From Lentilactobacillus diolivorans DSM 14421 (GTDB taxonomy: Bacteria > Bacillota > Bacilli > Lactobacillales > Lactobacillaceae): a DNA stretch of 59,043 nucleotides. This document shows positions 5,300 to 59,043 of this stretch, piece by piece. Where the stretch lies: contig NZ_AZEY01000105.1 in NCBI RefSeq assembly GCF_001434255.1, positions 1 to 59,043 of the forward strand, read 5' to 3'. The stretch's first letter is position 1, and every line of letters begins with the position of its first letter. Made by a program: the position numbers and the translations under genes. The notes below the pieces were generated by a model. That model made no database searches and was not told the DNA's origin. It saw only the letters and a program-made list of their open reading frames with translations.

Positions 5300-5816
5300 A
5301 GTGCAAAACCGAGCGTTTAGCTTCCAGAATATAAGGCACTTAAACCCAGATTCTTGTTTTGAATCTGGGTTTAAGTGCCTTATATGGCCGGAAGCTGCTC
5401 GGCTTTTGCACGTTTTGACTAAGTAATAAGGGTGATTCGCAGTCAGCAAACAATATTCCTGGTTTGGGAATATTGTTTGCGGGGGCTTATATGGCCGGAA
5501 GCTGCGGTTGCTTTGCACGTTTCAACTAGATAACAGGGAGATTTACAGTTAAAAAGCTCAAAACGAAGCCTTATATGGCCGGAAGCTGCTCGGCTTTTGC
5601 ACGTTTTGACTAAGTAATAAGGGGGATTCGCAGTTAGCAAACAATATTCCTGGTTTGGGAATATTGTTTGTGGGGGCTTATATGGCCGGAAGCTGCTCGG
5701 CTTTTGCACGTTTTGGCTAAGTAACAAGGGTGATTCGCAGTCAGCAAACAATATTCCTGGTTTGGGAATATTGTTTGCGGGGGCTTATATGGCCGGAAGC
5801 TGTCCCTTTTTACACG
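5300..5816 (+). repeat. Hairpin-repeat array A (full hairpin plus four partial units)
   Basis: A complete hairpin occupies 5301-5411. Its arms are GTGCAAAACCGAGC... and ...GCTCGGCTTTTGCAC, with a perfectly paired inner core (about 5333-5381). It is followed by a conserved tail (ACGTTTTGACTAAGTAATAA plus GATTCGCAGT). Four further right-arm units start with CTTATATGGCC at 5486, 5570, 5677 and 5784 (spacing 107, 84, 107, 107). Three of the intervening variable parts contain the same small palindrome GCAAACAATATTCC / GGAATATTGTTTGC. The element begins at the cobT stop codon. Confidence 0.9.
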
Positions 5817-6137
5817 TTACACACGTTGATCATAATATTTTAACGTTAAGGTTTCGACGACATTTCGATACGACAGGCAGAGATAAAGAATGATTAAAAC
5901 TCGTGTGGTGCTAAACGTAAAGTGAATGGGGATGAAGACGCTCATAATTCCGATAATTGAGACAATCAATAGTAAAAAGTCATCGTATTTTTGAGTTATC
6001 GTATTTGATTTTGCCAAAACGTAATTCCAGCGCTCGTCATTTTGATACTTTATCCCTTGGTCTGCCTTATATTTTGCAAGATAAAGGGTGAAGAAGAGTG
6101 AAACTAGAACTAAACATACGATGATAATTTGATCCAT
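5817..6137 (-). CDS. Small three-TM membrane protein paired with an HTH regulator
   Basis: 106 residues with a hydrophobic helix at about 3-21 and two more over 50-90, joined by a charged loop (KYKADQGIKYQNDERWNY). It follows the HTH gene after 2 bp, with its ribosome site GGAGG inside the end of that gene, so the pair is one operon with coupled translation. Such HTH plus small membrane protein pairs are common in Firmicutes. The membrane protein may sense a signal or control the regulator, but nothing here proves it. The C-terminal codons run up to the edge of repeat array A. Confidence 0.65.
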   Translation of the reverse strand: MDQIIIVCLVLVSLFFTLYLAKYKADQGIKYQNDERWNYVLAKSNTITQKYDDFLLLIVSIIGIMSVFIPIHFTFSTTRVLIILYLCLSYRNVVETLTLKYYDQRV

Positions 6138-6139
6138 GG

Positions 6140-6340
6140 CTATACCTCCGCTTTATAAAAGATGTCAGTGATAGAAACGTCAAACGCCACTGCAATATCA
6201 AACGCCAATTCCAGGGATGGTGTGTACTTATACTTTTCAATTGAAATAATTGCTTGTCTGGAAATGCCAACTTTTTTGGCGAGCATGGCTTGTGTCCAGT
6301 CGCGTTCAGCCCGGAGTACTTTGATTCGATTTTTAATCAA
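6140..6340 (-). CDS. Small Xre/Cro-type HTH regulator
   Basis: 66 residues, essentially a lone helix-turn-helix: KNRIKVLRAERDWTQAMLAKKVGISRQAIISIEKYKYTPSLELAFDIAVAF, the classic single-domain form that controls its own small operon. Of three in-frame TTG codons, the one at 6340 is seven bases after GAGGAGG and is the likely start; the 6346 TTG is too close. Co-transcribed with the three-TM protein. A candidate operator lies in its promoter (6387-6415). Confidence 0.85.
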   Translation of the reverse strand: MIKNRIKVLRAERDWTQAMLAKKVGISRQAIISIEKYKYTPSLELAFDIAVAFDVSITDIFYKAEV

Positions 6341-6386
6341 CAGCAATCCTCCTCATTCAATCCAATGCAAATCTATTTGTAAATTA

Positions 6387-6415
6387 TGGTAACGAACCCG
6401 TTATATTATGTCAAG
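6387..6415 (-). promoter_or_regulatory. Promoter and possible operator of the HTH operon
   Basis: On the minus strand: TTGACA (6410-6415), 17-base spacer, TACCAT as a weak -10 (6387-6392). The spacer contains an inverted repeat AACG-AACC-CGTT at 6391-6402 touching the -10, a plausible site for autorepression. Confidence 0.4.
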
Positions 6416-6603
6416 AGATCATTACTATGATTTTGATGAATAAGTGCCAAAATAATCACTATTACCCACAAATTATCCTGTCAAAATGCTTTGACATCCC
6501 CGATTGCCAGGGGATTTTGGCGGTAAGTTGACGTGAATTGGCCTATGCTAAAAATGAAGCAGGGCAAATGCTTTAAACCGAAAATTGAAAGTGAGTGGTA
6601 ACC

Positions 6604-6993
6604 ATGCTGGAAGATAATGATTTTATTATTCGTCAAATTCGGGCAGCTGCTGAAGGGATGGCTTATATACTGGGTCATGGAAAGTCGACTGGACGGACTG
6701 AGATTGTTTTTCCACAGGATCAACGTCAGAAATTACCACATCAAAACGAGTTGCAACAATTAATTGATCAGCATCAGTATGCTCAGGCAGCAGAACGGCT
6801 TTTAAAATACCAGCGGACCATGGCAGATCAAGATTTTGTCAAATTAGGAAATTGGTTTTACGATCAAGTGAATTTGTCTAATCAGACCAACCACCCGAGC
6901 GAGGATCTGTCCAAACAAACCATTATGGCCGGACTAAGACAATTGAGTCGACTTAAGTTGGATGCTGATAAGGCGCCCAAAACAACTAGGTAA
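6604..6993 (+). CDS. Small cytosolic protein, possibly DUF6483 family
   Basis: 129 residues, no signal or membrane segment. It starts MLEDNDFIIRQIRAAAEGMAYILG and is mostly helical. The opening resembles the lactobacillar DUF6483 family, but I cannot confirm that without a search. Start set at ATG 6604, with GTG 6595 as an alternative. It stands alone between the HTH promoter region and a strong terminator at 6997-7049. Confidence 0.6.
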   Translation: MLEDNDFIIRQIRAAAEGMAYILGHGKSTGRTEIVFPQDQRQKLPHQNELQQLIDQHQYAQAAERLLKYQRTMADQDFVKLGNWFYDQVNLSNQTNHPSEDLSKQTIMAGLRQLSRLKLDADKAPKTTR

Positions 6994-6996
6994 ATT

Positions 6997-7049
6997 AAAA
7001 AGCCCATGATTTAATCCCTTGGTAAAAGGCGGTTAAATCATGGGCTTTT
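6997..7049. terminator. Bidirectional intrinsic terminator
   Basis: Stem of AAAAGCCCATGATTTAA against TTAAATCATGGGCTTTT, 17 bp, with A and T runs outside. It separates the convergent 6.6-kb gene and proA. Confidence 0.85.
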
Positions 7050-7098
7050 CAGTTTTGATAAAAGCTTCGAATAAGAAACAGGTAGGCAATGAATCAGA

Positions 7099-12020: not shown

Positions 12021-12116
12021 GATTTTTAATCCTTTCGTGAAAAAGCTTTCAAAGCTATTTTGGTTAAGTTCGTTCTGTGGCATAATGTAACTATAAACTA
12101 ATTCTGGAGGAAAAAT

Positions 12117-16920: not shown

Positions 16921-16931
16921 AAAACATGAGC

Positions 16932-17040
16932 GAGATAGAGAACGTTTAACTTCCAGAATTTAAGGGATCTATCCGAGTACTCTGGTCCTGAACCTTTGGA
17001 TAAATCCCTTACATGACCGGAAGTTATTTTTTCGTATTTT
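16932..17040 (+). repeat. Hairpin-repeat element K (degenerate)
   Basis: Recognisable as a member by TTTAACTTCCAGAATTTAAG on the left and CTTACATGACCGGAAGTT on the right, then the tail TTCGGTAATAAGCATGATG. The core GGATCTATCC... / ...GGATAAATCC is only partly paired. A companion terminator-like hairpin follows at 17069-17102, as in other subclass B copies. Confidence 0.7.
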
Positions 17041-17068
17041 CTGTTCGGTAATAAGCATGATGGTACTA

Positions 17069-21937: not shown

Positions 21938-22927
21938 CTATACATTCTGATTCTGCAGTCCCTTAACAAAATCCAGATAGGCGGCTTGTTCGCCAGTGTC
22001 GCTAATTTGTGCGTGACTTAAATCGTTATCGTGTAAGTCGGCTTCTGGGAGATCAACTTTATGAGTGAAAGTGGCATTGCCAATTAAATCAATCTGGTAT
22101 GTCCCGTCGTTATCGTGAACCCGGGTTTTGACCATCCCGCCAGGATTATAGGCTGAGATAGTTTGCTCAAAATCGGCCATTTGAGGATGATTTAAGCAAA
22201 AGGCAAGACTAGTAGCAGACATCCCAGTACCGCAGGCATTGGTAAAGCCAACCCCCCGTTCAAAGGTCCGGACAAACAAGCTGTTCTTGTCTAAAATCTG
22301 AGCAAAACTAACGTTAACACCATCTGTAAAGTAATCGTTAGGACGATTAAGCATAGTTCCCAAGTTGCCCAACGTGTCTGACCGCATCACATCATCAGTC
22401 ACAAAGCTGATTAAATGGGGATTGGGTACCGCGATGGCAGTGAACCTCAGTCCCTTTGCAAATTGGGGAACTTCTTGATCAATTAAAGTATCGGTTCCTA
22501 AGTTTTGAAATGGTAGGGATTCTTTGTTAAACGTGACTGGTGAAATTTCAACGCTAAAGGTCGGGACGTTTGGTGCTAATTCAGTTTCCCGGTGGACATC
22601 TAAATCACTGTCTTGGGTCTGAACCTTAAAGGCATCTTGGTGGTACTTATCTGACAAGTAACGGGAGACCGTTCGTAGACCATTGCCACACATGGAAGCA
22701 ATGCTGCCATCCGTATTAATAACTTGCATACTGCCAAGAACGTCGGGATGGTCCGAACTATCGATGACCAATAAACCGTCAGCCCCGTCTAATAGGCCAC
22801 TTTGGGGATCAGTAATATGTTTGGCCAGTTCGACCAGTTCGTCTTGACTCAACTGATTGGCTAATTCAGTTTGATCGAGAATAAAGAACTTATTTTGTGA
22901 GCCATGAACTTTCAATAATTGAACCAT
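21938..22927 (-). CDS. dapF: Diaminopimelate epimerase
   Basis: Converts LL-diaminopimelate to meso-diaminopimelate, the form used in peptidoglycan and as lysine precursor. 329 residues, longer than the usual about 275, with extra C-terminal sequence after about residue 300. The two catalytic cysteines are Cys80 in ASMCGNGLRT and Cys232 in NACGTGMSA, and ERG is at 223-225. Second gene of a leftward lysC-dapF unit, separated from lysC by a partial hairpin repeat. Ribosome site TTGGAGGAA. Confidence 0.95.
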   Translation of the reverse strand: MVQLLKVHGSQNKFFILDQTELANQLSQDELVELAKHITDPQSGLLDGADGLLVIDSSDHPDVLGSMQVINTDGSIASMCGNGLRTVSRYLSDKYHQDAFKVQTQDSDLDVHRETELAPNVPTFSVEISPVTFNKESLPFQNLGTDTLIDQEVPQFAKGLRFTAIAVPNPHLISFVTDDVMRSDTLGNLGTMLNRPNDYFTDGVNVSFAQILDKNSLFVRTFERGVGFTNACGTGMSATSLAFCLNHPQMADFEQTISAYNPGGMVKTRVHDNDGTYQIDLIGNATFTHKVDLPEADLHDNDLSHAQISDTGEQAAYLDFVKGLQNQNV

Positions 22928-22954: not shown

Positions 22955-23050
22955 GAGAGACTGGGATAATAAAATATCCAGTCCTGTTTTGTGTCATTAC
23001 GACTATTACTGAGTGAAAATGCGGTCCAAACGCAGCTTCCGGCCCGCTCT
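22955..23050 (-). repeat. Partial hairpin-repeat element L
   Basis: Minus-strand right-arm fragment only: GGCCGGAAGCTGCG..., then tail CACTCAGTAATAGTCGTAATGACAC, then companion hairpin GACTGGATA / TATCCCAGTC (about 22957-22985). It fills the lysC-dapF gap and may reduce read-through into dapF. Confidence 0.75.
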
Positions 23051-23051: not shown

Positions 23052-24452
23052 TTATTCCGAGTATACCGCATTCTTCGAAGGAGTCACCGATTGACTGCTC
23101 GCTTGTGAAAAGAAGTGTTGATAAATCCTTCGAACAGCTTCGTCAGCATCGGATTCACGTGTGCCCAGCATAATTGAAATCCGAGAAGCCCCTTGATTAA
23201 TCATATGAACAGCGATGTCGTGTTCGGCAAGTGGTCGGATGATATTTTCAATCGTACCAACCCGTGCCCGCATTCCTTCGCCTACTACCATGATAATGGC
23301 GTAGTCATCAATCCATTCCAGTGTATCAGGTTTGACGGTTGCTTTGATGTCTGCACACATCTTATGGATGGTTTCATTATCTAGTTGATTTCGATCAAAA
23401 ATGATGGTGAGGTCATCAATCCCAGAGGGCATATGCTCGTAAGAAACCCCATATTTGTATAAAATCTTGAGAATCTTTAAAGTGAAACCAACTTCCTTAT
23501 TCAGCAGATAACGATGCAGATAAAGGGCAGCGAAGCGATTTGATCCGGTAATTCCGGTAACTGATTTAGTTGGTTTAAATGAGTTTTCCGGAACAATCAG
23601 CGTCCCAGGCAAGTCAGGATTATTCGTATTCTTAACGTTAATGGGAACCTGACCTTGGATCGCCGGAATGATGGCTTCATCATTAAAAACTGAAAAGCCT
23701 GCATATGATAATTCACGCATCTCACGAAAAGTCATTTTGGCAATTGGGGCAGGGTTCTTAACGACTTTGGGATTGGCAGCGAAGATTGCGTCAACGTCGG
23801 TAAAATTCTCGTAGAGTGATGCGTGAAGTCCGCGAGCCAAAATTGAACCGGTAATATCGGAACCACCACGGGCAAAGGTAGCGATGTTGCCATCAGCGGT
23901 GAAACCAAAGAAACCTGGGAAAACTAATTTTTCGTCACCATACGACAGATGTTGGAGATGATCATACGTTTCTTCCAGCACTGATGCCGAATTGGGATCG
24001 TCGCTCAATAAAATACCGGCTTCACTGGGATCAACGAAGCGGGCTTTAGTTCCTAAACGATTAAGACAGGCCGCAAATAGTTCGGCATTTAATCGTTCAC
24101 CATGAGCTTTGAAAGCAGCCATTAAATAGTCGTTATTTGGATAGGATCGGGTGGGTAACGCCTTAAGTTTGCGATAGATGTCAGTTAAGACATCGTCAGG
24201 CACATTAAAACCATGTCCGATTTCCTGGTAACGATCAAATATTTGATCGGCATAGTTGTTGTCCTGGTCATTCAAAGTGGCATTGGCGTATTTGATCAGC
24301 AAATCAGTTACTTTGATGTCGCCAGTAAATCGTTTGCCGGGTGCAGAGGTGACAACGACCTTGCGTTGTGAATCTGCTTGAACAATGTGAATGACTTTTT
24401 CAACGTGGGCTGCGTCTGCTAATGAACTACCCCCAAATTTTACGACTTTCAT
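23052..24452 (-). CDS. lysC: Aspartate kinase
   Basis: Phosphorylates aspartate, the entry step to lysine/DAP, threonine and methionine. 466 residues, monofunctional, class with a single full-length chain: MKVVKFGGSSLADAAHV at the start, FARGGSDITGSILARGL, and two C-terminal ACT-type regulatory modules (about 310-450, e.g. ITIIFDRNQLDNETIHKM, IMVVGEGMRARVGTIENI). Feedback by lysine or other end products is expected from the ACT domains. Start ATG 24452 after GGGAGAGA. Transcribed away from lysA; its own promoter lies at 24517-24544 with no visible riboswitch. Confidence 0.95.
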   Translation of the reverse strand: MKVVKFGGSSLADAAHVEKVIHIVQADSQRKVVVTSAPGKRFTGDIKVTDLLIKYANATLNDQDNNYADQIFDRYQEIGHGFNVPDDVLTDIYRKLKALPTRSYPNNDYLMAAFKAHGERLNAELFAACLNRLGTKARFVDPSEAGILLSDDPNSASVLEETYDHLQHLSYGDEKLVFPGFFGFTADGNIATFARGGSDITGSILARGLHASLYENFTDVDAIFAANPKVVKNPAPIAKMTFREMRELSYAGFSVFNDEAIIPAIQGQVPINVKNTNNPDLPGTLIVPENSFKPTKSVTGITGSNRFAALYLHRYLLNKEVGFTLKILKILYKYGVSYEHMPSGIDDLTIIFDRNQLDNETIHKMCADIKATVKPDTLEWIDDYAIIMVVGEGMRARVGTIENIIRPLAEHDIAVHMINQGASRISIMLGTRESDADEAVRRIYQHFFSQASSQSVTPSKNAVYSE

Positions 24453-24516
24453 TTTATCAATTCTCTCCCTGGGTCTTCCCATTAATTTAAAATTCAGTTA
24501 GATTTCGTTAAGTCGA

Positions 24517-24656: not shown

Positions 24657-24669
24657 GATGTCAATTAAA

Positions 24670-24840
24670 TCATTAGAGGTTGCAACCAACATCAGTAACC
24701 AGTGGAGTTCCTACTTGAACTTTGAAGCTGGCAAAAGGGGCGGTTGCCGAAGCACCAAGTGAAGTAGGGCTTGGCGCGCTGGGACTTGGCTTAATAGGCT
24801 TTGGACTGTCGCAGCTAACATGTCGGCTGCGGGGCGCTAA
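24670..24840 (+). promoter_or_regulatory. Lysine riboswitch (L-box)
   Basis: Conserved aptamer blocks appear in order: TTAGAGGTTGCAACC, CAGTAACCAGTGGAG, GGGGCGGTTGCCGAAGC, GCGCTGGGACTTGGC and GGACTGTCGCAGC. The five-helix layout fits the L-box. A terminator follows at 24881-24932, so lysine binding should shut off the DAP/lysine operon. A spurious ORF runs through this region. Confidence 0.92.
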
Positions 24841-24880
24841 CGACAATTGATAAAGAATATCAGTTCAATAAAAATTCTGA

Positions 24881-29209: not shown

Positions 29210-29608
29210 TTACCGTTGGAAATTGGTTACGCTGGGTCACCGAATGCTGATTTCTTGTGCGTGGTGGAATTTGGATTTTGTTGAAACGTGTGCCAGAAGA
29301 CTGATCCCTGCCGTGTGTCGGAATTTGAGCTTAGTTAAAATGTGTGACAAAAGGCAGCTCCCGGCCATGTAAGTGAATTATCTAAATATTCCAAGACCGG
29401 AATATTCAGATGATTGGAGTGGAAACTTAGCTGAAATGTGTGGCAGAAGGCTGATCCCTGCCGTGTATTGGAATTTGAACTTAGTTAAAACGTGTGACAA
29501 AAGGCAGCTCCCGGCCATGTAAGTGAATTATCTGAATATTCCAAGACCGGAATATTCAGATAATTCACTTACATTCTGGGAGCTAACCGCCTTCTGTCAC
29601 ACTCTGAA
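29210..29608 (-). repeat. Hairpin-repeat array G between dapA and dapB
   Basis: Minus-oriented. The complete hairpin spans 29492-29602 (arms GTGTGACAAAAGGC / GCCTTCTGTCACAC; core AAGTGAATTATCTGAATATTCC / GGAATATTCAGATAATTCACTT). Two partial units precede it in plus coordinates (about 29275-29490), one with a broken core (ATTATCTAAATATTCC against GGAATATTCAGATGATT). The left boundary of the hairpin is 6-12 nt from the dapB ribosome site, opposite in orientation to the operon. Confidence 0.88.
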
Positions 29609-29624
29609 TACAAGGAGATTTCTT

Positions 29625-30398
29625 ATGATTAAAGTGTTAGTTGCCGGATTTATGGGGTCGATGGGTCAAAAGACTGTCTCCATGGTCAATGAGAATGACA
29701 ACTTTGAATTAGTTGGTGCCTATAGTCCCAATGTTGATGTTGCGCATATGCAAGGGATGGGGCTGAATGATAACGTTAAATTATTTGGTGATTTGAAGGA
29801 TATTCAAACGGATGCGGATGTCTGGATTGATTTTACGATTCCAGCTGCCGCCTTTGAAAATGCTAAATTTGCCATCGAACATGGTATCCATCCAGTTGTT
29901 GGGACTTCAGGGATGAGCGACGACCAAGTCAGTGAGCTGCAAAAATTAGCTGCTGATAAAGGAGTTGGCGGGATTATTGCCCCTAACTTTGGCTTATCTG
30001 CCGTTCTTTTGATGAAGTTTGCCAAGGAAGCCGCTAAGTATATGCCGGACGTCGAAATTATTGAAATGCATCATGCTGATAAGCTGGATGCGCCGTCTGG
30101 AACAGCCTTATCAACCGCTAAGATGATTGATGAGGTCCGCGGCAATCATCCAACGCCTAAATCTGATGAAACATTATCGGGTGTTCGCGGTGGTGATTAC
30201 AATGGTATCAAGATTCATTCAGTTCGTTTACCCGGCTATATTGCCCATGAACAGGTGTTGTTTGGTGGTAAGGGTGAAGCATTAACGATCCGCCAAGATT
30301 CATTTGACCGTGGCTCATTTATGAATGGCGTTGAAATTGCTGTTCCAGCCGCAGCCAAAGCAACTAAATTGATTGTTGGCTTGGAAAATATTTTATAA
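29625..30398 (+). CDS. dapB: 4-hydroxy-tetrahydrodipicolinate reductase
   Basis: NAD(P)H-dependent reductase giving tetrahydrodipicolinate. 257 residues from ATG 29625 (AAGGAGATTTCTT). The frame is open upstream to 29523, but that part is the repeat element. Rossmann motif [23 protein letters not shown], and the family active-site stretch [18 protein letters not shown] with its His-His and Lys. It depends for transcription on read-through of array G, or on a promoter within the repeats. Confidence 0.95.
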
Positions 30399-32954: not shown

Positions 32955-33214
32955 ACGGACAAATTCGGCTTTTGTGCCACGTTAAATAGGTAGTTCTTGA
33001 AGACTAGGAAGTTGAAAGGCTTACTAGAAAAGGGGCTCTGAGAAGTAGCTTCCAGTCATATAGGTGCCGTAGTAAAATCGAGATTTAAATCCGAAACGTG
33101 TGCCAGAAGACTGATCCCGGCCGCGGAAAAAGATTAACCAAATATTCTAAAAACCAGAATATTCGGTTAATCTCCTTCCACTCTGGGATCAAAGCGTCTT
33201 CTGTCACACTCTAA
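32955..33214 (-). repeat. Hairpin-repeat element H and older relics
   Basis: A complete minus-oriented hairpin occupies about 33098-33208 (arms GTGTGCCAGAAGAC / GTCTTCTGTCACAC; core GATTAACC.AATATTCT / AGAATATTCGGTTAATC). Before it are decayed pieces in the opposite orientation: TTCGGCTTTTGTGCCACGTT at about 32965 and TAGCTTCCAGTCATATAGGTGCC at about 33045. The locus has therefore been occupied more than once. The remaining bases from 32728 hold no gene. Confidence 0.8.
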
Positions 33215-42835: not shown

Positions 42836-43160
42836 TGCCGAGCTGAAATGTGCGTTCAAGCCGAGGGGCTGCTCTCGGTTATATAGCTAAACAATCTCAA
42901 TGTTCCAAAATCAGGTATATTGAGGGAATGGACTATTAACCGAGCCGAAATGTGCGCCAAGCAGCAGCTCCCGGCCATATAACCAAACAATCTCAATGTG
43001 CCCAAAACCAGGCATATTGGTGGAATGGATTATTAACCGAGCTGAAATGTGCTCCAAAAGGCTGATCCCGGCCATATAACTAAACAATCTCAATGTGCCC
43101 AAAACCAGGCACATTGAGATTGTTTAGTTATATGGCCGGGATCAGCCTTTTTCCGCACTC
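42836..43160 (-). repeat. Hairpin-repeat array F, with a 43-bp perfect palindrome
   Basis: Minus-oriented and begins at the potD stop codon. The proximal hairpin has arms 43057-43099 and 43108-43150 that pair without a single mismatch over 43 bp (8-base loop), including CCCGGCCATATAAC / GTTATATGGCCGGG, where other copies have a bulge. Two partial units follow further from the gene, each containing AACAATCTCAATGT with unpaired partners. Confidence 0.92.
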
Positions 43161-44231
43161 TTACTTGTTCATCTTAAACTCCAAATACAAATCATTATAC
43201 TGCTGAACCTTCTGGGCACTCAGGTTGCGATACACCTGCAGTTTATCAATGACCTTTTGCGGCGGATAAAACTGCTTATCTTCCCGGACCTTTTTCGGCA
43301 GTAGCTTAAATGCTGCTGTATTTGGGGTCGAGTAACCGATATAACGAGCGTTTTGTGCCGCGTTTTCCGGCTTGCTCATGAAGTTCAGGAACGCATAAAT
43401 TGCCTTGTAATGCTTGGCCGTCTTGGGGATAACCAGGTTATCAAACCACATATTGCTGCCCTCGGTTGGCACCACATAGTGCAAGTGCGCGTTCTGCGAC
43501 ATCATTTCCGTCGCCTCACCGGACCAGTCAACGGCTACCGGTGCTTCACCTTCCGCCATATACATTTTAATTTCATCGGCGACAACCGCTTTGACATTTG
43601 GTGACAGCCGATTAAGTTTATCCTTGGCAGCAATCATTTCCCGAGAATTGGTTGTGTTTACTGAATGACCCATGGAAATGAGCGAGAAGCCCATAATATC
43701 CCTAGCTGAGTCAATCAGCATAATGTCATTTCGATATTTTTTACTCCAGAGCTGATTCCAATGTTCTAAAGAACCCGTTTTAACATCCTGGTCGTTATAG
43801 ATAATACCTAGTGTACCCCAGAAATAGGGAATTGAGTATTTGTTACCAGGATCAAAACTTTTATTCATAAATGAAGCCCCATAGTTATTGAGACCGGTCA
43901 ATTTTGACTTATCCAACGGAACAAGCAGGTGATCAGCCTTCATCTTTTGAACCATGTAATCGCTGGGGACGGTTAAATCATAGTTAGTGCCGCCCTGCTG
44001 TACCTTGGTGTACATTGCTTCATTACTATCGAAGGTATCCACATTGACGTGATAACCGGTTTCTTTTTGAAATTTGGTCAGAAGGTTGGGATCAATATAG
44101 TCACCCCAATTATATAAATTGAGAACTTTATTGCCCGAATCACCGGTTGATTTGGTGAGTTGATTACTCCCATAGGCGAGACCGGCACAAATGGCAAGGA
44201 TCGCGATAAACACCATCGCAAACTTTTTCAT
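43161..44231 (-). CDS. potD: Spermidine/putrescine-binding protein
   Basis: Extracellular substrate-binding component of the polyamine ABC importer. 356 residues with an N-terminal signal/anchor (MKKFAMVFIAILAICAGLAYGSNQ; the Cys at about 16 is a possible lipid site, though the lipobox is weak). The mature part starts LNLYNWGDYIDPNLLTKF, the family hallmark, followed by VDTFDSNEAMYTKVQQG and VPSDYMVQKM. Overlaps potC by 4 bp. Last gene of the potABCD operon. Confidence 0.95.
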   Translation of the reverse strand: MKKFAMVFIAILAICAGLAYGSNQLTKSTGDSGNKVLNLYNWGDYIDPNLLTKFQKETGYHVNVDTFDSNEAMYTKVQQGGTNYDLTVPSDYMVQKMKADHLLVPLDKSKLTGLNNYGASFMNKSFDPGNKYSIPYFWGTLGIIYNDQDVKTGSLEHWNQLWSKKYRNDIMLIDSARDIMGFSLISMGHSVNTTNSREMIAAKDKLNRLSPNVKAVVADEIKMYMAEGEAPVAVDWSGEATEMMSQNAHLHYVVPTEGSNMWFDNLVIPKTAKHYKAIYAFLNFMSKPENAAQNARYIGYSTPNTAAFKLLPKKVREDKQFYPPQKVIDKLQVYRNLSAQKVQQYNDLYLEFKMNK

Positions 44232-45049: not shown

Positions 45050-45858
45050 TATGATCGCCTCCTGTTCCGTTTAGTGGTTGTCAGCAACATAACAATCACC
45101 ATTGAAATAATCAGAACCACACCAATCGTCGACCCCATTCCCCAATTCATGGTTGTTAGGAAATGTTCTTCAACGGCAGTTCCCAATGTAATGACTTTAT
45201 TACCACCAATTAATCTGGAAAGCATGAAAAGGGATAGGGAAGGGATGAAGACAATTTGGATACCGGACTTAATCCCCGGCATCGTTAGTGGAATGATAAT
45301 CTTGGTTAAGGTTTGCCAATTTGTCGCCCCTAAATCCCGGCTGGCTTTAATATATGACTCGCTGATATCGGTCATCGAGTTATATATCGGCAGGATCATA
45401 AATGGAATTTGAATATAAGCAGCGACCAGAATGAAGCTGGCGTCCGTAAACAACATGTGCTGAACCGGCAGGCCAAAAAACTGGAAAATGTTATTAACCA
45501 GACCATCGTGACTCAAGAGACCAATAAAGGCGTACGCTTTTAACAGCAGGTTAATCCACGTTGGCAGGATAACCAGTAGAATCCAGAGGTCGCGATGCTT
45601 TAGCTTACTGATGACCAACGCCATTGGGTAACTGATTAGAATGGAAAATAGCGTAATTAAAAAAGCGTACAGAACTGAATTAGCCGTCATGGTTAAATAA
45701 GTACCTGATGAAAAGAATTCTTGATAGTTTGAGAAGGTAAACTGATGATGAATATTAAAGAATGAATAATAGACAATTAAGGCAACCGGTGAGATCACAA
45801 AGAGGACCAACCAGAGCATGTAAGGCGTGTAAAACATGGTTTTGAAACTTCGTCTCAT
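45049..45858 (-). CDS. potB: Spermidine/putrescine ABC transporter permease
   Basis: Second permease, 269 residues from ATG 45858 (AGGGGC before it); the frame is open to 45951, inside potA. EAA loop SYIKASRDLGATNWQTLTKIIIPLTMPGI. Pairs with PotC to form the channel. Confidence 0.94.
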   Translation of the reverse strand: MRRSFKTMFYTPYMLWLVLFVISPVALIVYYSFFNIHHQFTFSNYQEFFSSGTYLTMTANSVLYAFLITLFSILISYPMALVISKLKHRDLWILLVILPTWINLLLKAYAFIGLLSHDGLVNNIFQFFGLPVQHMLFTDASFILVAAYIQIPFMILPIYNSMTDISESYIKASRDLGATNWQTLTKIIIPLTMPGIKSGIQIVFIPSLSLFMLSRLIGGNKVITLGTAVEEHFLTTMNWGMGSTIGVVLIISMVIVMLLTTTKRNRRRS

Positions 45859-47554: not shown

Positions 47555-48529
47555 ATGAAAACAATTTTGGCAATACATACTGGTGGGACAATTTCAATGT
47601 CTCAAAATGACAAGGGTGAAATCGTGCCTAACGATGAAAATCCGATTGCGGAACAACAGTCAATTTTAAAGGGACAGGTCAAATTAATTACCGATGAAAT
47701 GTTTAATTTACCTTCACCGCACGTAACGCCCGAGGTGATGTTAAAGATTAAGCAGCGGATTATCAAGGCGATTGCTGATGGGATTGACGGTGTGGTCATT
47801 ACTCATGGGACTGATACACTTGAAGAGACCGCTTATTTTCTTGACTTAACGTTGCCAAATACAATTCCGGTCGTTGTGACCGGGGCAATGCGGTCATCAA
47901 ATGAAATTGGGTCTGATGGCCTGTACAATTTTAGAAATGCGATTTTAGTTGCTGCTACCGATGAATCATATGGCAAAGGTGTTTTGGTGGTGATGAACGA
48001 TGAAATTCATACGGCACGGTTTGTAACCAAGACGCATACAACAAACGTAGCGACGTTTAGAACACCAACGTTTGGGCCAATTGGGATTGTGACTCAAGAC
48101 AAGGCTAAATACTTCCAGGAATTGATTCAAACCGAAGTTGCCGACATTGATCATGTGGTTAGTGGTGTCTATTTGATTAAAGCGTATGCCGGAATGGATG
48201 GCACCCTGTTTGACGCAATTAACCAATCGGATACCAAGGGATTGGTTATCGAAGGACTGGGAGCGGGAAATTTGCCGCCGCAAACATTGCCGGCAATCCA
48301 GAAGTTGTTGGATAGGCAGATCCCAATTGTGCTGGTTTCAAGATGTTATAACGGTGTGGCCCAGGATATCTATGACTATCAGGGCGGCGGCATTCAATTG
48401 AAGAAAATGGGCTTAATCCTGTGCCAAGGGTTGAATGGCCAAAAAGCAAGAATTAAGTTGCTGGTGGGATTAAGCGATGAGAAGAGTGGGAAGAGTTTGG
48501 CCCATTTTGTGAGGAATGCCGTGTCATAA
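47555..48529 (+). CDS. ansA: Type I L-asparaginase
   Basis: Hydrolyses asparagine to aspartate and ammonia in the cytosol. 324 residues without a signal peptide. The first catalytic Thr lies in IHTGGTISM and the second with Lys/Asp in ITHGTDTLEETAYFLDLT; GAMRSSNEIGSDG is also typical. Its product aspartate feeds the lysC pathway of this window, although no regulatory link is visible. Followed after a few bases by a hairpin-repeat array. Confidence 0.93.
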   Translation: MKTILAIHTGGTISMSQNDKGEIVPNDENPIAEQQSILKGQVKLITDEMFNLPSPHVTPEVMLKIKQRIIKAIADGIDGVVITHGTDTLEETAYFLDLTLPNTIPVVVTGAMRSSNEIGSDGLYNFRNAILVAATDESYGKGVLVVMNDEIHTARFVTKTHTTNVATFRTPTFGPIGIVTQDKAKYFQELIQTEVADIDHVVSGVYLIKAYAGMDGTLFDAINQSDTKGLVIEGLGAGNLPPQTLPAIQKLLDRQIPIVLVSRCYNGVAQDIYDYQGGGIQLKKMGLILCQGLNGQKARIKLLVGLSDEKSGKSLAHFVRNAVS

Positions 48530-48534
48530 AAACA

Positions 48535-48845
48535 GAGTATGAAATCAAGCGTTTAGCTCCCAGAATATAAGCGTCCCTTATCCAATATTCCGGGCTTGAA
48601 TATTGGATAAGGGACGCTTATATGGCCGGGAGCTGCTTGATTTCACACGTTTCGGCTAGGTAGCCAGTCCCAAATCTCCGAGTAGAAAATATTAGGTTGA
48701 AGTACTTATATGGCCGGGGGTCTGCTTGGCTTCACACGTTTCGGCTAGGTAGCCAGCCCAGGACCAGATGTTCTCGGTTTTGAAATATCTGGTCTAAGTG
48801 TTTATATGCCTGGCAGCTTGCTTAGTTTCACCCATTTCGCAACCA
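48535..48845 (+). repeat. Hairpin-repeat array D
   Basis: Complete hairpin at about 48537-48648 with arms GAAATCAAGC / GCTTGATTTC and core AAGCGTCCCTTATCCAATATTC / GAATATTGGATAAGGGACGCTT. Right-arm units recur at 48705 and about 48801 (spacing 88 and 96), each followed by CACGTTTCGGCTAGGTAGCC or a decayed form. Begins 5-8 bp after the asparaginase stop. Confidence 0.9.
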
Positions 48846-48943: not shown

Positions 48944-50104
48944 TTGGAAACACTGTATGATCAGCTTAGAACTGCCCAAATTGATGAATCGTTAATTAAT
49001 GCATTCCAAAACGACAGTGACATTGTCTATACTGGGATCATTCAATTTTTAAGTTCAACTGATTTTATCATGTTAACTTATAACGATTATGGTCTTCAAG
49101 ACGGGGAAGTTTATTTGAAAATTAGTTCGGTTAAGTCGGTGGAAACGGATAGTTATGATTTGGCAAATATAAAGGAGCGGATTTCTTTTGATGAAGTGCA
49201 TCACCTGTCAGCTAATCCATCTTTTGATTTGCCGATTAAAATGAGCGACACGTTGTTTGACAGGGTGGTTCAAACCCTTCATGAAGATACAAAAGTGGCC
49301 TTGGTCATTACCATCGAAAACGGCAAGCTAACCTATAACGAAGGTTTGATCCAGGAACTTCAACCGGATCACTTAACATTTTTGAATTTAAATAAATTTG
49401 ATTTTTCAAAGCGACCAGTTTTTGATATTCCCTATACCGATATCCGTGGTATTGAATTTGGTGGCACTGAATTGAAATTATTGGAAGACGCGCTTTCACT
49501 GATTGATCCGAAAAATCACGTTGAAGACGTAACGGTTACTGATCCGGATCAATTTGTGGTGGAAGCTGAAAAATTGCGTAAGAGTGGTCAATGGCTCATC
49601 ATTGATACGAATGACAAGCGGCGATATTTTTATGTTGGTCAAATTATCGCCAGCAATTCGCGTGAATTAGTGATGATGGTTGTTGATATGAATGGTCAGT
49701 TTGGTGGCTATGTTTGGATTCGGTATGATGATATTAAGCGGTTCATTACGGATGCGGATTATTTAAAGATTATTGATCAATTCGTTAAGGTAAATAAAGC
49801 GGCTAAGAACTTTGCGTTACCGGTATTAAATGCAGACCGAGCATTTGACAACGCTGATGATATCTTGGTTCATGTCTTAACGCAGGCAATTCAGTATCAT
49901 CGCTTGATTAGATTCGAAATGACCAACCAGGATAATTTTGTTGGTTATCCAACAAATTTTGATTTTGCGAGTGGTCTGGTAACGGTGGAGTTGCTGGATG
50001 TGGATGAGCAGGACGAAGAATTGACAAGAAAAATCGGTGTGGAATCTATCAGAGAAATGGCTTTTGATTACTTTAGGGCTTATTTGGTGGAGAATAATGT
50101 ATAA
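48944..50104 (+). CDS. Unknown protein with four internal beta-rich repeats
   Basis: 386 residues from a TTG start after AGAAGGTGCACCC. Four stretches share one pattern, a beta hairpin (G-x-I/L, then D/N-x-L-x-M/V/L) closing on an I-x-x-I/V-K/R segment: TGIIQFLSSTDFIMLTYNDYG...ISSVKSVET, EGLIQELQPDHLTFLNLNKFD...YTDIRGIEF, VGQIIASNSRELVMMVVDMNGQ...YDDIKRFIT, and GYPTNFDFASGLVTVELLDVD...VESIREMAF. The look is of tandem Sm-like or SH3-like barrels, perhaps RNA or protein binding; this is inference from pattern alone. No membrane or signal segment. Confidence 0.6.
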   Translation: METLYDQLRTAQIDESLINAFQNDSDIVYTGIIQFLSSTDFIMLTYNDYGLQDGEVYLKISSVKSVETDSYDLANIKERISFDEVHHLSANPSFDLPIKMSDTLFDRVVQTLHEDTKVALVITIENGKLTYNEGLIQELQPDHLTFLNLNKFDFSKRPVFDIPYTDIRGIEFGGTELKLLEDALSLIDPKNHVEDVTVTDPDQFVVEAEKLRKSGQWLIIDTNDKRRYFYVGQIIASNSRELVMMVVDMNGQFGGYVWIRYDDIKRFITDADYLKIIDQFVKVNKAAKNFALPVLNADRAFDNADDILVHVLTQAIQYHRLIRFEMTNQDNFVGYPTNFDFASGLVTVELLDVDEQDEELTRKIGVESIREMAFDYFRAYLVENNV

Positions 50105-50485
50105 AGAGTGGGAAACCAAGCGGTTAGCTCCCAGAATATAAGCCTCTCAACCTAATATTCTGGGTCTGAATATTAGGTTGAGAGGCTTATATGGCCGGGA
50201 GCTGCTTGGCTTCACACGTTTCGGCTAGGTAGCCAGCCTATTTCTGGGTCTGAATATTAGGTTGGGAGGCTTATATGGCCGGGAGCTGCTTGGTTTCACA
50301 CGTTTCAGCTAGGTAGCCAGTCCAAGATCTCCAGTTTCAGAATATCTGGTTGAAGTACTTATATGGCCGGGGTTTGCTTGGCTTCACACGTTTCGGCTAG
50401 GTAGCCAGTCTATTTCTGGTTTTGAATATTTGATTGGTGGGCTTATATGGCCGGGAACTGCTGGGCTTTCAAGCGCTTTCAGTCT
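50105..50485 (+). repeat. Hairpin-repeat array E
   Basis: Complete hairpin at 50108-50218 (arms GGGAAACCAAGC / GCTTGGCTTCAC; core AAGCCTCTCAACCTAATATTC / GAATATTAGGTTGAGAGGCTT). Three more right-arm units start at about 50270, 50358 and 50442 (spacing 84, 88, 84), with tail CACGTTTCGGCTAGGTAGCC, itself containing GGCTA-GG-TAGCC. Begins 3 bp after the upstream stop. Confidence 0.9.
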
Positions 50486-55017: not shown

Positions 55018-55034
55018 TTTAAAAACCTCTTGTT

Positions 55035-55689: not shown

Positions 55690-55872
55690 CAAAAAGAGGC
55701 TGGAACAATAATCGTTTTAAACGGTCTCTGTTAGTGTCAACTCGATTATTACCAAGCAAAAACGCGGGACAAAAGGCAGCTTCCGGCCGTGTAGTCGAAT
55801 TATCCAAATATTCAGGTTCAGAATATTCGGATAATTCGGTTACACTGGAAGCTAAGCGCCTTTTGTCCCGCT
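55690..55872 (-). repeat. Hairpin-repeat element J in the ykoE leader
   Basis: Minus-strand hairpin at 55763-55871 (arms GCGGGACAAAAGGC / GCGCCTTTTGTCCCGC; core CGAATTATCC / GGATAATTCG with AATATTC inside), tail GGTAATAATCGAGTTGAC, then a companion segment ending GTTCCAGCCTCTTTTT (about 55690-55730). It is located between riboswitch and start codon. Confidence 0.88.
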
Positions 55873-55905
55873 CTGCTCAAAGTCATCTACTAATGCACTT
55901 TATCC

Positions 55906-55992
55906 ATTCGGATACAACGGAATATGCTCCCTTCGCTGGTATTATCCAGATCAGGTTCGATGGGTTTTTCTCAGCCGAAAGGCACCCCAGAT
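55906..55992 (-). promoter_or_regulatory. TPP riboswitch (THI element)
   Basis: On the minus strand the canonical blocks appear in order: TGGGGTGCC, CGGCTGAGAAA, ACCCATCGAACCTGATCTGG, and TAATACCAGCGAAGGGAGCA. Thiamine pyrophosphate binding should reduce ykoEDC expression. No simple terminator follows at once; element J takes the place where an expression platform would be. Confidence 0.95.
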
Positions 55993-56010
55993 AGTTGTAT
56001 GATCACGAAT

Positions 56011-56039: not shown

Positions 56040-56225
56040 GGTATCCTAATTTGGATGCCTCCGGAAACCGGCAATCGGCCGCTTAAGTAGTTTAACGATT
56101 TAAATTTGTCTAGTCGGAATGGCTTTGCAATTAAGCTGAAAAAGATTGCAAGATCCCTTGACGTGGTATTGGTCGATAAGTGTATGATTTTAGTAGAGCA
56201 TTATTAGGAATTGGAGGAATTTGGT

Positions 56226-57032
56226 TTGGTAAAAGTAATTGCAAGTGATATGGATGGGACTTTTTTAAATAATGAGGGTACTTTTGACGAGAAATTGTTT
56301 CAAGAACAATTGAAAAAGATGGCGGCTAATGGGATGCACTTTATTTCAGCAAGCGGCAATCAGTATCAACACTTGTTGGCACTGTTTGATAATGTCACTG
56401 GCCCAGTTTCGTATGTCTGCAATAATGGGGCTCTGGTCGTTGATGAAAATGGCGTCATTATCTCAGAAACAATTATCGATCATCCTGTTTTGCAAAGTGC
56501 CTTGGATTACTTGGTGAAAGATCCGAGCTTCTTTGGCGCCAAAATTATTTTAGTTGGTCGAGATGGGACTTATTGTAATTTATCCAAAAATAATAAACGG
56601 TTTAAAAAATCAGAACATTTCTATCCAGATCTTCAATCAATCTCGGATTTAACGATGGTTTTTGACCCAATTTATAAAATTGAAGCAACTTGGGAAGAAG
56701 GCAGCCCACTTGAGCGCCAGACCAAATTTAACCACAAGTTCAGCCGACGATTGACTGCCGCAGCTTCTGGTAATGGCGGCCTCGATATTGTGGTCAGTGG
56801 GACAACCAAATCAACTGGGGTCGATGAATTGTTACAGTCTTGGCAGTTAACCTTCGATGATGTTGTGGCGTTTGGCGATAACAATAATGATTTTGAATTA
56901 TTAAATGAAGCTAAATTAGGGTATGCCATGAAGAATTCGGCACCGGATTTGTTAGCCAAAGTTGCCGCGGTTACCGCCCATGACAATAATGAGCAGGGCG
57001 TTCAAAAACAGATTGATCAACTATTAGGTTAA
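56226..57032 (+). CDS. Cof-type HAD-superfamily phosphatase
   Basis: 268 residues; TTG start at 56226, seven bases after GGAGG (an earlier TTG at 56211 lies in the ribosome site). Catalytic Asp pair in IASDMDGTFLNNEG, a Cof-type cap domain in the middle, and the distal loop FGDNNNDFELL binding Mg. Members remove phosphate from sugar phosphates, pyridoxal phosphate or HMP pyrophosphate. Its place beside the thiamine transporter is suggestive for the last, but the gene is divergent and outside the riboswitch. Confidence 0.9.
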   Translation: MVKVIASDMDGTFLNNEGTFDEKLFQEQLKKMAANGMHFISASGNQYQHLLALFDNVTGPVSYVCNNGALVVDENGVIISETIIDHPVLQSALDYLVKDPSFFGAKIILVGRDGTYCNLSKNNKRFKKSEHFYPDLQSISDLTMVFDPIYKIEATWEEGSPLERQTKFNHKFSRRLTAAASGNGGLDIVVSGTTKSTGVDELLQSWQLTFDDVVAFGDNNNDFELLNEAKLGYAMKNSAPDLLAKVAAVTAHDNNEQGVQKQIDQLLG

Positions 57033-57052
57033 TCAGCTTTGATTGGAAAAAA

Positions 57053-57991
57053 TCAAGCTAGAAATTGGTTGACTTTGGGATGGCTTTTGAGCAAATCAGG
57101 TAATGAAACGGCCAAAATCTGATTTGAGTCATGATACCGGAAATAGTAGCTTTGAGTTGTTGAGTCAAGGATTGACAAATAATGGGTGTAGTTGAAATTG
57201 GGATGGTGATCCATTGCTGGCTGATAGGGGATTGCCACCTCGGCCAAAACGTTAAATAATCGAGTCCGGGCATCAACCTGGGTCCGGCTTTGTTGCAAGC
57301 CAAGTTTATTGACAGCGGCAACCAGAAACCGGGTCGTTGGCGTGTTGGTGGCACTTGGTAAGTGTTGGCGGCGAATCAAATTTTCGGACTTGACTTGGAG
57401 TTCGCTTAGAGATGAGTTAACGTGCAGTTTCTTTGCTAAACGTCTCATGTGATCAGGATAGGTTGGCGAGTTGGTTAAAACGCCAATCGAATCATCAATG
57501 ACTTCAAGTCCATTAACGGTTGGTTCAATGACTAAGGTTTGGCCTGATTTATCAGTTAGGATCCAATGAAATGAGAAGATTTCGTTACCTGCCAACCAAT
57601 TTTTGCCAATGATGGCAATGGTTGTTAGATCGTTTTTTACGTCGGCAATTGACGCGTGTTCACCTAATGCCCACGGTAAAAAGTCTTGCGGGGTTAGATT
57701 GAGTTTATTGTTGACCGGCTCGTCGTGATAGTGGGCTTTGAGTGGGAACATGAGCTCGGCACAAGTTAAGCCTTTGGTGTTGACCCCATCGGCAACCAAA
57801 ATATGATTATCGCCCTCAATCCGACCGCCACCAACATAGGGGTACCTGACTGGCCTGGTTCCTGATAAAGCGGTTTCATAATTGGTCTGATTAATTAAAA
57901 CTGGTTTCCAGGCCGCCCGTACCGGAAAATCCATGGTTCGTGCCAGCAAAGTATGGTCGTTTAAAGTTGTTAAAGTTAAACTGGTACACAC
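57053..57991 (-). CDS. Choloylglycine hydrolase-family enzyme (bile salt hydrolase / penicillin V acylase-like)
   Basis: 312 residues of the Ntn-hydrolase family that cleaves linear amides. The start must be GTG 57991, six bases after GAGGTG, because this puts the nucleophile at Cys2 (MCTSLTL) after removal of fMet; longer versions would bury it. Other active-site landmarks: LARTMDFP, VADGVNTKGLTCAELMFP, VLTNSPTYPDHM and RTQVDARTRLFNV. Whether it prefers conjugated bile salts or penicillin V/N-acyl homoserine lactones cannot be told by eye. Cytosolic, monocistronic. Confidence 0.9.
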   Translation of the reverse strand: MCTSLTLTTLNDHTLLARTMDFPVRAAWKPVLINQTNYETALSGTRPVRYPYVGGGRIEGDNHILVADGVNTKGLTCAELMFPLKAHYHDEPVNNKLNLTPQDFLPWALGEHASIADVKNDLTTIAIIGKNWLAGNEIFSFHWILTDKSGQTLVIEPTVNGLEVIDDSIGVLTNSPTYPDHMRRLAKKLHVNSSLSELQVKSENLIRRQHLPSATNTPTTRFLVAAVNKLGLQQSRTQVDARTRLFNVLAEVAIPYQPAMDHHPNFNYTHYLSILDSTTQSYYFRYHDSNQILAVSLPDLLKSHPKVNQFLA

Positions 57992-58082
57992 AAGAATCAC
58001 CTCATTTAATTGTTTGACATTATCGCACTTACCTATAATTTAGTGTAAACTGAAGGCAATAACAAGTAAAAGGGGAAATAGT

Positions 58083-58709
58083 ATGAAATCCGCGTGGAAC
58101 CTAGTTGGAATGGGCCTTTGGCTGATTCTATTTATCTATTTTATCTGGATGATTTACAACATGCGTGGTCGTCGGCTGCGTTTGATTGTTACCCAGAAGA
58201 AAGGCTTTACCTGGCAAAATTTTGGCATCTCAATGGCCGAATTGATTGTGTTCTTGTTGGTGTTTTGGGGGATGTCGTACACAACATTCTTCCAGGATGT
58301 TCGCAAGTTAAATAAAAATAACGTGCGGACGTCATACACTTACAAGCCGCTGATTGTTCAATATCAAGCGGATCAATCTGATTATGTGACGGTTAAGAAT
58401 GGCAATGGCCGGAAGCCGATTCAGCGGTATACATATTACGTTGAGGGTCGCAAATATGAGGATGATAGTTTGAATGCGACGGTCGTTTCTGGTGAGAGTA
58501 ACCTAAACGTGCAGGCGCAGGCCTATAAGTGGAACAAGGAGTGGTTGAACCATCTGGACCAGCGATATCAACATGCGTGGGTTGGTACTGTGACCACAAC
58601 CTATAAGAAAAACTTCTTTAATGGAATTGGTCTGCACGCAGGGAGACAAGCAGACCGTTTCAGTTTGATTAGAATCCCGGATCGATCGTTTATGAAGGTG
58701 TTGAAGTAG
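58083..58709 (+). CDS. Two-TM membrane protein, possibly LVIS_2131 family
   Basis: 208 residues: helices at about 8-27 and 52-68, then a soluble, Lys/Tyr/Asn-rich domain (FQDVRKLNKNNVRTSYTYKPLIVQYQADQSDYVTVKNGNGRKPIQRYTYYVEG). It resembles the lactobacillar LVIS_2131-like proteins; no function is known. Ribosome site AAAAGGGGAAATAGT. Ends 4 bp before array C. Confidence 0.7.
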   Translation: MKSAWNLVGMGLWLILFIYFIWMIYNMRGRRLRLIVTQKKGFTWQNFGISMAELIVFLLVFWGMSYTTFFQDVRKLNKNNVRTSYTYKPLIVQYQADQSDYVTVKNGNGRKPIQRYTYYVEGRKYEDDSLNATVVSGESNLNVQAQAYKWNKEWLNHLDQRYQHAWVGTVTTTYKKNFFNGIGLHAGRQADRFSLIRIPDRSFMKVLK

Positions 58710-58710
58710 A

Positions 58711-59043
58711 GAGTGCAAAACCGAGCGCTTAGCTTCCAGAATATAAGGCACTTAACCCCAGATTCCTGTTTTGAATCTGGGGTTAAGTGCCTTATATGGC
58801 CGGAAGCTGCTCGGCTTTTGCACGTTTTAACTAAAGTAACAAGGCCATTCGCAGTTAAAACCCAGCCAAGCTGGAAACCTCATATGGCCGGAAGCTGCGG
58901 TTTCTTTGCACGTTTTGGCTAAGTAACAAAGGCCATTCGCAGTTAAGAAATAAGCAAAACAGTGCCTTATATGGCCGGAAGCTGCTTGGCTTTTGCACGT
59001 TTTAACTAAAGTAACAAGGCCATTCGCAGTTAAAACCCAGCCA
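58711..59043 (+). repeat. Hairpin-repeat array C (continues past the window)
   Basis: Complete hairpin at 58714-58823 with core CACTTAACCCCAGATTC / GAATCTGGGGTTAAGTG, a paired variant of the core in arrays A and B. Right-arm units follow at about 58881 and 58966, with tail ACTAAAGTAACAAGGCCATTCGCAGTTAA, and the array runs to the last base. Confidence 0.92.

What the first reader, a model, noticed from the sequence alone, without database searches (positions are those of the whole stretch)
5300..59043. Dispersed family of large hairpins with a conserved shell and a copy-specific, self-complementary core
Thirteen loci (5.3, 16.9, 21.4, 21.8, 23.0, 29.5, 33.1, 36.1, 43.1, 48.6, 50.2, 55.8 and 58.8 kb) share one plan, seen directly: left arm (GTGnnAAAnCnAGC...TTAGCTnCCAGAATATAAG), variable core, right arm (CTTATATGGCCGGnAGCTG...CAC), then a conserved tail (GTTTnnnCTnnGTAAnAA). 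The core differs between loci yet pairs with itself within each copy. The ordinary MITE or REP model predicts one shared sequence; here structure is kept while sequence changes. Candidate mechanisms are hairpin-templated correction, single-strand transposition or a transcribed RNA with selected fold. I know of no named family with this design, but I could not search.
Basis: partly seen in the sequence, partly recalled or inferred. Interest (0 to 1): 0.85.

Follow-up and report, generated by a model that had tools for sequence, protein, structure and literature searches.

The report
Stop-codon hairpin repeats with changing cores
This lactic acid bacterium carries well over a hundred copies of a large hairpin, many sitting directly behind the stop codon of a gene, whose stem sequence differs from copy to copy while its two arms stay matched, which makes it a natural test case for how paired RNA stems evolve.

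Summary
Eleven of the 13 listed loci are full ~128-nt hairpins; two (23.0 and 36.1 kb) are remnants. A covariance model finds 150 copies in the host genome (150 was the number scored) and hits in 19 of 24 Lentilactobacillus genomes. In 73 copies, 97.7% of paired cells pair and 40 of 45 pairs change on both sides (covariation 0.644; shuffled 0.195).

Four things go beyond the finding. (1) Of 52 copies with a same-strand gene upstream, 28 begin within -2..+6 nt of its stop codon (random mean 5.7). (2) G-T mismatches exceed A-C 124:28, so the fold is kept on one strand, as RNA or single-stranded DNA. (3) In 14 orthologous copy pairs of two species, 65 base pairs changed on both sides and 26 on one; at one locus the interior looks exchanged as a block. 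(4) Half-elements are right halves: 48 right inner motifs and 2 left arms lie outside full copies.

Best reading: a non-autonomous, transcribed hairpin repeat, related in kind to Efa-1, SPRITE and BOX, whose stems are renewed by events that write both arms and kept by selection on the folded strand. Its mover is unknown; Y1 transposase and reverse transcriptase do not fit.

The parts
5298..5426 (+). full hairpin; its AG completes the stop codon of the ORF 4217-5299 (DBI_PRT family)
   Evidence: 137.1 bits; (153 nt folded)
5427..5802 (+). tandem right-half units behind the 5.3 kb hairpin; three of them carry a core different from that hairpin
16927..17051 (+). full hairpin (diverged), 6 nt behind an MFS-family ORF
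   Evidence: 87.3 bits
21385..21513 (+). full hairpin, followed by diverged right-half sequence to about 21660
   Evidence: 134.9 bits
21749..21876 (-). full hairpin 61 nt behind the ORF 21938-22927 (DAP_epimerase family)
   Evidence: 129.4 bits
21696..21729 (.). terminator-like stem beyond the tail of the 21.8 kb hairpin
23006..23050 (-). short remnant (right end) behind the ORF 23052-24482
   Evidence: E 0.11
29477..29605 (-). full hairpin, antisense between DHDPS and DapB ORFs (the DapB ORF as listed, 29523-30398, overlaps it and probably starts later)
   Evidence: 141.5 bits
29282..29476 (-). right-half units behind the 29.5 kb hairpin
33083..33212 (-). full hairpin, antisense between two + strand ORFs
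   Evidence: 127.1 bits
36085..36200 (-). core-less remnant with a terminator-like stem; read by eye, approximate limits, no model match
43034..43161 (-). full hairpin overlapping by one base the stop codon of a solute-binding protein ORF (43161-44231)
   Evidence: 96.1 bits
42881..43033 (-). right-half units behind the 43.1 kb hairpin
48534..48663 (+). full hairpin 4 nt behind the asparaginase-family ORF 47555-48529
   Evidence: 130.5 bits
48664..48830 (+). right-half units behind the 48.5 kb hairpin
50105..50232 (+). full hairpin directly behind the ORF 48944-50104 (0 nt)
   Evidence: 137.6 bits
50233..50468 (+). three right-half units with partly different cores
55749..55874 (-). full hairpin, on the - strand downstream of the TPP riboswitch at 55910-55999
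   Evidence: 127.4 bits
58710..58838 (+). full hairpin directly behind the ORF 58083-58709 (0 nt)
   Evidence: 135.8 bits
58839..59043 (+). right-half units behind the 58.7 kb hairpin, cut by the window end

Best explanation
It is a high-copy, non-autonomous hairpin repeat of Lactobacillaceae that sits in sense orientation, often directly behind the stop codon of a gene, and would be transcribed as part of the 3' untranslated region. The conserved letters are the ends and the non-helical parts with their flanks (AGAGTG, the GNTT bulge in GCGNTTAG, the AGA/GGCC internal loop, CACGTTT). The helices between them vary in sequence but are held in pairing. Shown: the anatomy, the placement, the one-strand mismatch asymmetry, and an excess of two-sided over one-sided change at orthologous copies. 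Inferred: that both arms change together because polymerase template switching copies one arm onto the other and because interiors are exchanged between copies (right-half units being a likely reservoir); that selection on the folded single strand, most likely RNA, removes broken folds; and that the hairpin acts as a 3'-end element (transcript protection or termination). The enzyme that spread it is not identified.
For: Two-sided covariation: 40 of 45 pairs, score 0.644 against 0.195 shuffled and at most 0.107 slid. One-strand fold: G-T 124, A-C 28, bootstrap 95% of the G-T share 0.73-0.89; without the model, 71:6 in the 49 of 73 cores that could be cut out and 162:78 over all 73 whole hairpins. 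Placement: in co-directional gaps 27 sense to 6 antisense; 28 of 52 start at -2..+6 nt from the stop, random mean 5.7 and maximum 12 in 2000 draws; in two other species 24 of 42, random mean 3.3 and maximum 10. Deposited annotation: on a Lactiplantibacillus plasmid the CDS ends at 1500 and the match starts at 1501; on a Loigolactobacillus plasmid fabI ends at 1498 and the match starts at 1501. Two-arm change: over 14 orthologous pairs, 509 shared base pairs, 418 unchanged, 26 changed on one side, 65 on both. Block exchange: at L314:2614 / L321:3191 the 45 nt upstream, 18 nt of left shell and 20 nt of right shell are identical (counted on the alignment), the middle and core stems differ, and a right-half unit downstream in G006 carries the core that G005 has in its full hairpin; one arm of the G006 core occurs exactly at a second place in that genome.
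Against: No RNA data; the G-T excess would also fit a fold of one single-stranded DNA strand. Rows of A4 are related copies, so cells are not independent, and the CM alignment leans towards its own structure. Within the host genome cores are not uncoupled from shells: with gaps allowed and the conserved inner part included, copy pairs with shells at least 90% identical have mean core identity 0.83 against 0.65 for all pairs, and only 4 of 59 fall below 0.60. The ungapped count (16 of 56 below 0.60) was inflated by one-base shifts. The direction of the block exchange is not known, and some other core differences between species could be new insertions at the same stop codon. One changed core has no donor in the genome searched, another has one, so no single process covers both. 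A third annotated plasmid copy has no same-strand gene directly upstream; 13 of 65 placed host copies and 17 of 59 in the other two species are not behind a sense gene. No clear target-site duplication was seen.
Confidence: 0.52

Rival explanations
1. An ordinary structured RNA element: stems drift one base at a time through G-U intermediates under selection for pairing; no special mutation process.
For: G-T is the commonest departure; some orthologous cores differ by few paired changes; cores of copies with like shells are mostly alike.
Against: At orthologous copies double changes outnumber single ones 65 to 26; at one locus the whole core stem differs while 45 nt upstream and both shells are identical.
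Confidence: 0.23
2. Site-specific re-insertion: the stop codon is a hot spot, elements are lost and different copies insert again, so cores differ between orthologous sites without any change inside an element.
For: Stop-codon placement; sites occupied in only one of two species.
Against: At L314:2614 / L321:3191 left flank, both shells and the downstream spacer are conserved, and the G006 right-half unit carries the G005 core.
Confidence: 0.15
3. A single-stranded-DNA transposon remnant (IS200/IS605, RAYT-REP or attC-like) whose hairpin is kept for enzyme recognition.
For: Conserved bulge and internal loop, one-strand fold, high copy number.
Against: Y1 transposase (PF01797) in 7 of 24 genomes and absent from G006, G014 and G004, which have 106, 128 and 133 model hits. 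No integrase was tested.
Confidence: 0.08
4. A retroelement-like origin: right-half units are 5'-truncated copies made by reverse transcription from the 3' end.
For: Right inner motifs outside full copies 48 of 93; left arms 2 of 58, one of which lies in a weaker full copy.
Against: Reverse transcriptase (PF00078) in 8 of 24 genomes, absent from G000, G005, G006, G014 and G004.
Confidence: 0.05

Closest known systems
Efa-1 of Enterococcus faecalis (PMC2267715); probably the EFAR elements (Venditti et al. 2007, recalled, paper not held)
   Same: 163 nt, 65 copies in their table, type I, a pair of adjacent stem-loops (passages read). Recalled for EFAR: insertion at stem-loops, near stop codons.
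   Different: No sequence of Efa-1/EFAR was compared here; copy-specific core, core exchange and right-half arrays are not in the passages read.
SPRITE of Streptococcus pneumoniae (PMC3049150)
   Same: Close to 3' ends of genes, enriched between convergent genes, proposed as co-opted terminators (passages read).
   Different: SPRITE is described as an 18-bp duplex with a U-rich tract; this one is a ~45-pair hairpin with bulge and internal loop.
BOX of Streptococcus pneumoniae (PMC3049150)
   Same: Modular, with module copy-number variation and a predicted fold as RNA (passages read).
   Different: BOX modules are described as shared sequences; here stem sequence differs between copies.
REP/RAYT (GTAG- or CGTC-tagged palindromes, PMC3733652)
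   Same: High-copy extragenic palindromes.
   Different: REPs are 20-40 bp (start of abstract in the listing); Y1 transposase does not track these elements.
Template-switch evolution of RNA hairpins (PMC8794818)
   Same: Two-arm compensatory change in one event (abstract and discussion read).
   Different: That work dealt with RNA genes such as microRNA and rRNA; here many dispersed bacterial copies can serve as replicates.

Membership tests
MITE | terminal inverted repeats | tested here: met
   end helix (columns 4-8 with 131-135) 95.3% paired in 73 copies
MITE | target-site duplication | tested here: inconclusive
   no clear duplication at sites occupied in one of G005 and G006; junctions blurred by divergence
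MITE | autonomous parent with the same ends | tested here: inconclusive
   58 left arms in 444 kb of G000, 2 outside the 73 copies, neither examined for a gene behind it; rest of the genome not scanned
REP/RAYT | Y1 (RAYT) transposase in genomes rich in the repeat | tested here: not met
   PF01797 in 7 of 24; none in G006, G014, G004
REP/RAYT | 20-40 bp palindrome with GTAG or CGTC tag | tested here: not met
   128 nt, starts AGAGTG or a near form; the definition is from a listed abstract and memory
Efa-1/EFAR | two adjacent stem-loops | tested here: inconclusive
   a strict pattern for the second, terminator-like stem found it behind 4 of 73 copies; diverged forms seen by eye behind some others
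Efa-1/EFAR | sequence homology | not tested
   no Efa-1 sequence at hand
Rfam families | score above gathering threshold | tested here: not met
   only lysine and TPP riboswitches in the window; in two stretches searched permissively, matches stay below threshold and are mostly miRNA hairpins, with Listeria rli51 at E 0.015
group II intron or retron | reverse transcriptase in element-rich genomes | tested here: not met
   PF00078 in 8 of 24, not in G000
integron attC | conserved boxes and an integron integrase | not tested
   considered because of variable stem and place behind stop codons; no integrase search was made

The most novel reading that the evidence does not exclude
A hairpin repeat that renews itself: stops of genes are the insertion targets (perhaps because DNA strands open just behind the last ribosome), tandem right-half units bank alternative arms, and template switching rewrites the other arm to match, so copies keep a near-perfect but changing stem. 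This would be a self-correcting repeat system, a bacterial case in which compensatory change is one event rather than two mutations.
Probability: 0.2. Interest if true: 0.8.

Novelty: new variant of a known kind. Interest (0 to 1): 0.6.

Why it matters
How perfect RNA stems keep their pairing under random mutation is an open question; PMC8794818 calls the evidence for template switching in the maintenance of short stems circumstantial (discussion read). Here one genome holds over a hundred natural replicates, relatives hold orthologous copies, and right-half units keep other cores next to the full hairpin. That makes rate and mechanism of two-arm change measurable. A repeat that begins at stop codons in more than one genus of food and beer bacteria also affects annotation of 3' ends and may shape transcript ends of many genes.

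Tried and rejected
Rejected or left open: (a) RAYT/IS200 mobilisation. (b) Reverse transcriptase. (c) The core being the captured native terminator of the site: by eye, cores at 45563, 38747 and L312:10201 do not resemble the native stem in the other species. (d) A pseudoknot between the GNTT bulge and the tail: looked at by eye only, no support. (e) A named Rfam RNA. (f) G011 against G016: 94% identical over one 20-kb region; about 354 kb of other G011 contigs had no long near-identical match in about 727 kb of G016, unexplained. (g) Papers: searches listed no named family of this design in lactobacilli; open-access library only. (h) Phage records: no match for one copy.

Corrected on checking: I first took the ungapped core comparison as proof that cores are uncoupled from shells inside one genome. 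A gapped recount does not bear that out; I lowered the best explanation from 0.55 to 0.52 and raised stepwise drift from 0.20 to 0.23 (ssDNA from 0.10 to 0.08). I also first called the G005 core at L314:2614 the older one; the direction is not known.

Rows dropped: 8 of 73 copies lay at a locus edge and 9 overlapped a called ORF at their midpoint. In one search, 4 of 73 had no GAGTG/GAGCG start. In one search, 24 of 73 had no TAAG..CTTA frame for the core count. For one search I chose 14 pairs: of the 15 I left out two (L313:15473 and L314:8186) because shell and flanks did not look orthologous, and added the 2614 pair; further candidates (among them 59674, 23834, 56761) were not counted. Five of the 14 pairs share 33 or fewer folded pairs because the cores do not align; upstream flank identity over up to 300 nt is 0.80-0.96.
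Full report
WHERE. The window is contig C56 of a 3.26-Mb genome in 109 contigs. The host species was not determined.

THE OBSERVATION. The two arm motifs are far above shuffle expectation. A model of 128 positions and 45 pairs was built from 11 window copies. It finds these 11 at 87-142 bits, a remnant at 23.0 kb (E 0.11), and nothing at 36.1 kb up to E 10, where a core-less remnant is visible. Opposite-strand hits of the same hairpins appear in the lists because a hairpin also resembles itself on the other strand. One copy folds at -49 kcal/mol (DNA parameters) against -15.7, sd 3.1, for shuffles. In the whole host genome 150 candidates were scored and 150 matched, so the true number may be higher; the right inner motif alone occurs 296 times with up to one mismatch, reversed-pattern control 5.

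COVARIATION. From the window plus 20 stretches of the host genome (444,309 bases), 73 copies pass E 1e-16. Of 3263 cells 97.7% pair (slid controls 33-47%), 40 of 45 pairs change on both sides, and the covariation score is 0.644 against 0.195, sd 0.006. Conserved blocks are AGAGTG, GCGNTTAG, CCAG and the following TAA, GGCCGG and CACGTTT; an outer helix, a short middle helix and the core vary. There are 59 distinct left cores of 73; 790 of 797 core cells pair within a copy, 58% between copies. Cores and shells are not independent: with gaps allowed, copy pairs with like shells (0.90 or more, 59 pairs) have mean core identity 0.83 against 0.65 for all pairs, and 4 of 59 lie below 0.60; single examples with almost equal shells and unlike cores exist (printed).

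WHICH STRAND FOLDS. A change in one arm gives G-T or A-C on the element strand, and the reverse on the other strand. G-T 124, A-C 28, of 3263 cells. A count without the model gives 71:6 in 49 cores and 162:78 in 73 whole hairpins aligned by halves, a cruder measure. Of the 124 G-T cells 58 lie in columns whose main pair is A-T (counted on the table), so C-to-T mutation on one strand is not the whole cause. The fold is kept on the element strand, as RNA or as single-stranded DNA.

PLACEMENT. Of 65 copies placed (8 of 73 at locus edges), 52 lie sense behind a gene: 27 in co-directional gaps, 25 between convergent genes; 6 are antisense in co-directional gaps and 7 lie between divergent genes. 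With refined neighbours, 28 of 52 begin at -2..+6 nt from the stop codon and 5 at -23, where the ORF runs into the element to its own TAG; random re-placement in the same gaps gives a mean of 5.7, maximum 12. In G005 and G006, 24 of 42 do so, random mean 3.3, maximum 10; 17 further copies have no same-strand gene upstream. Genes were called by a simple script. Deposited annotation agrees on two plasmids of other genera and not on a third. At two sites occupied in G005 only (89710 and 100258) the protein ends at the same codon in G006 (read by eye), so the element did not shorten the gene.

TANDEM UNITS. In the host 32 of 73 full hairpins are followed by one to three right-half units by a fixed pattern. 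Of 93 right inner motifs 48 lie outside the 73 copies; of 58 left arms 2 do, one of them in a weaker full copy. In G014, G016 and G008 neighbouring full hairpins stand head to tail with different cores. Between G011 and G016 (94% identical there) units are present in one and absent in the other.

ORTHOLOGOUS COPIES. G005 and G006 are colinear, mostly at 82-90%, over the stretches compared. Some sites are occupied in one species only; one of these keeps a core-less shell in the other species (75856). Junctions show no clear target duplication. In 14 chosen orthologous pairs, 509 shared base pairs: 418 same, 26 one side, 65 both sides. The clearest block difference is L314:2614 / L321:3191: 45 nt upstream and both shells identical, middle and core stems different. 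A downstream right-half unit of G006 has a core like that of the G005 full hairpin, and one arm of the G006 core occurs exactly at 1,708,589 in another unit of that genome; which species changed is not known. Another changed core has no match within 2 mismatches outside its own locus in G006. So both exchange and local two-arm rewriting may occur.

DISTRIBUTION. 19 of 24 Lentilactobacillus genomes match at E 0.001, three of these with only 1-4 matches. In a sample of 301 Lactobacillaceae genomes 128 match at E 1e-8, in 22 of 40 genera, at most 11 candidates scored per genome. Outside the family 12 further genomes of an order sample of 198 match at 47-76 bits, so weak hits may be any long hairpin. 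Matches at E 1e-25 or better lie in 24 of the 301 genomes, in four genera (counted). Copies are also on plasmids of Loigolactobacillus backii and Lactiplantibacillus plantarum; no match in phage records for one query.

MOVER. Y1 transposase is in 7 of 24 genomes, reverse transcriptase in 8 of 24; neither follows copy number. Other families were not searched. The mover is unknown.

READING. Best supported is a transcribed, selected fold whose stems are renewed by events that write both arms. Template switching is a proposed way to do this (PMC8794818; abstract and discussion read), and one locus fits exchange between copies. Kin in kind are Efa-1, SPRITE and BOX. Whether it shares descent with Efa-1/EFAR was not tested.

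Noticed in passing
window 24666-24847: Lysine riboswitch ahead of + strand ORFs that include DHDPS and DapB families; a hairpin copy lies antisense between two of them (29477-29605).
   Followed up: partly
window 55910-55999: TPP riboswitch on the - strand; a hairpin copy lies between it and the next listed - strand ORF.
   Followed up: no
L319 about 12060-12115 (G006): A gap holds a nearly perfect native palindrome where G005 has two hairpin copies facing each other.
   Followed up: partly
L126:4865 and L357:1501: What looks like the same gene end (a nucleobase symporter in L357) carries the repeat at the stop codon both in the host and on a Lactiplantibacillus plasmid, with different cores.
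   Followed up: partly
L326 and L329: In two genomes of another genus a similar gene end appears to carry copies with like shells and different cores.
   Followed up: no
L129/L130 against other G011 and G016 stretches: One 20-kb region is 94% identical while about 354 kb of other G011 contigs had no long near-identical match in about 727 kb of G016; chance, or recent transfer of the region.
   Followed up: partly
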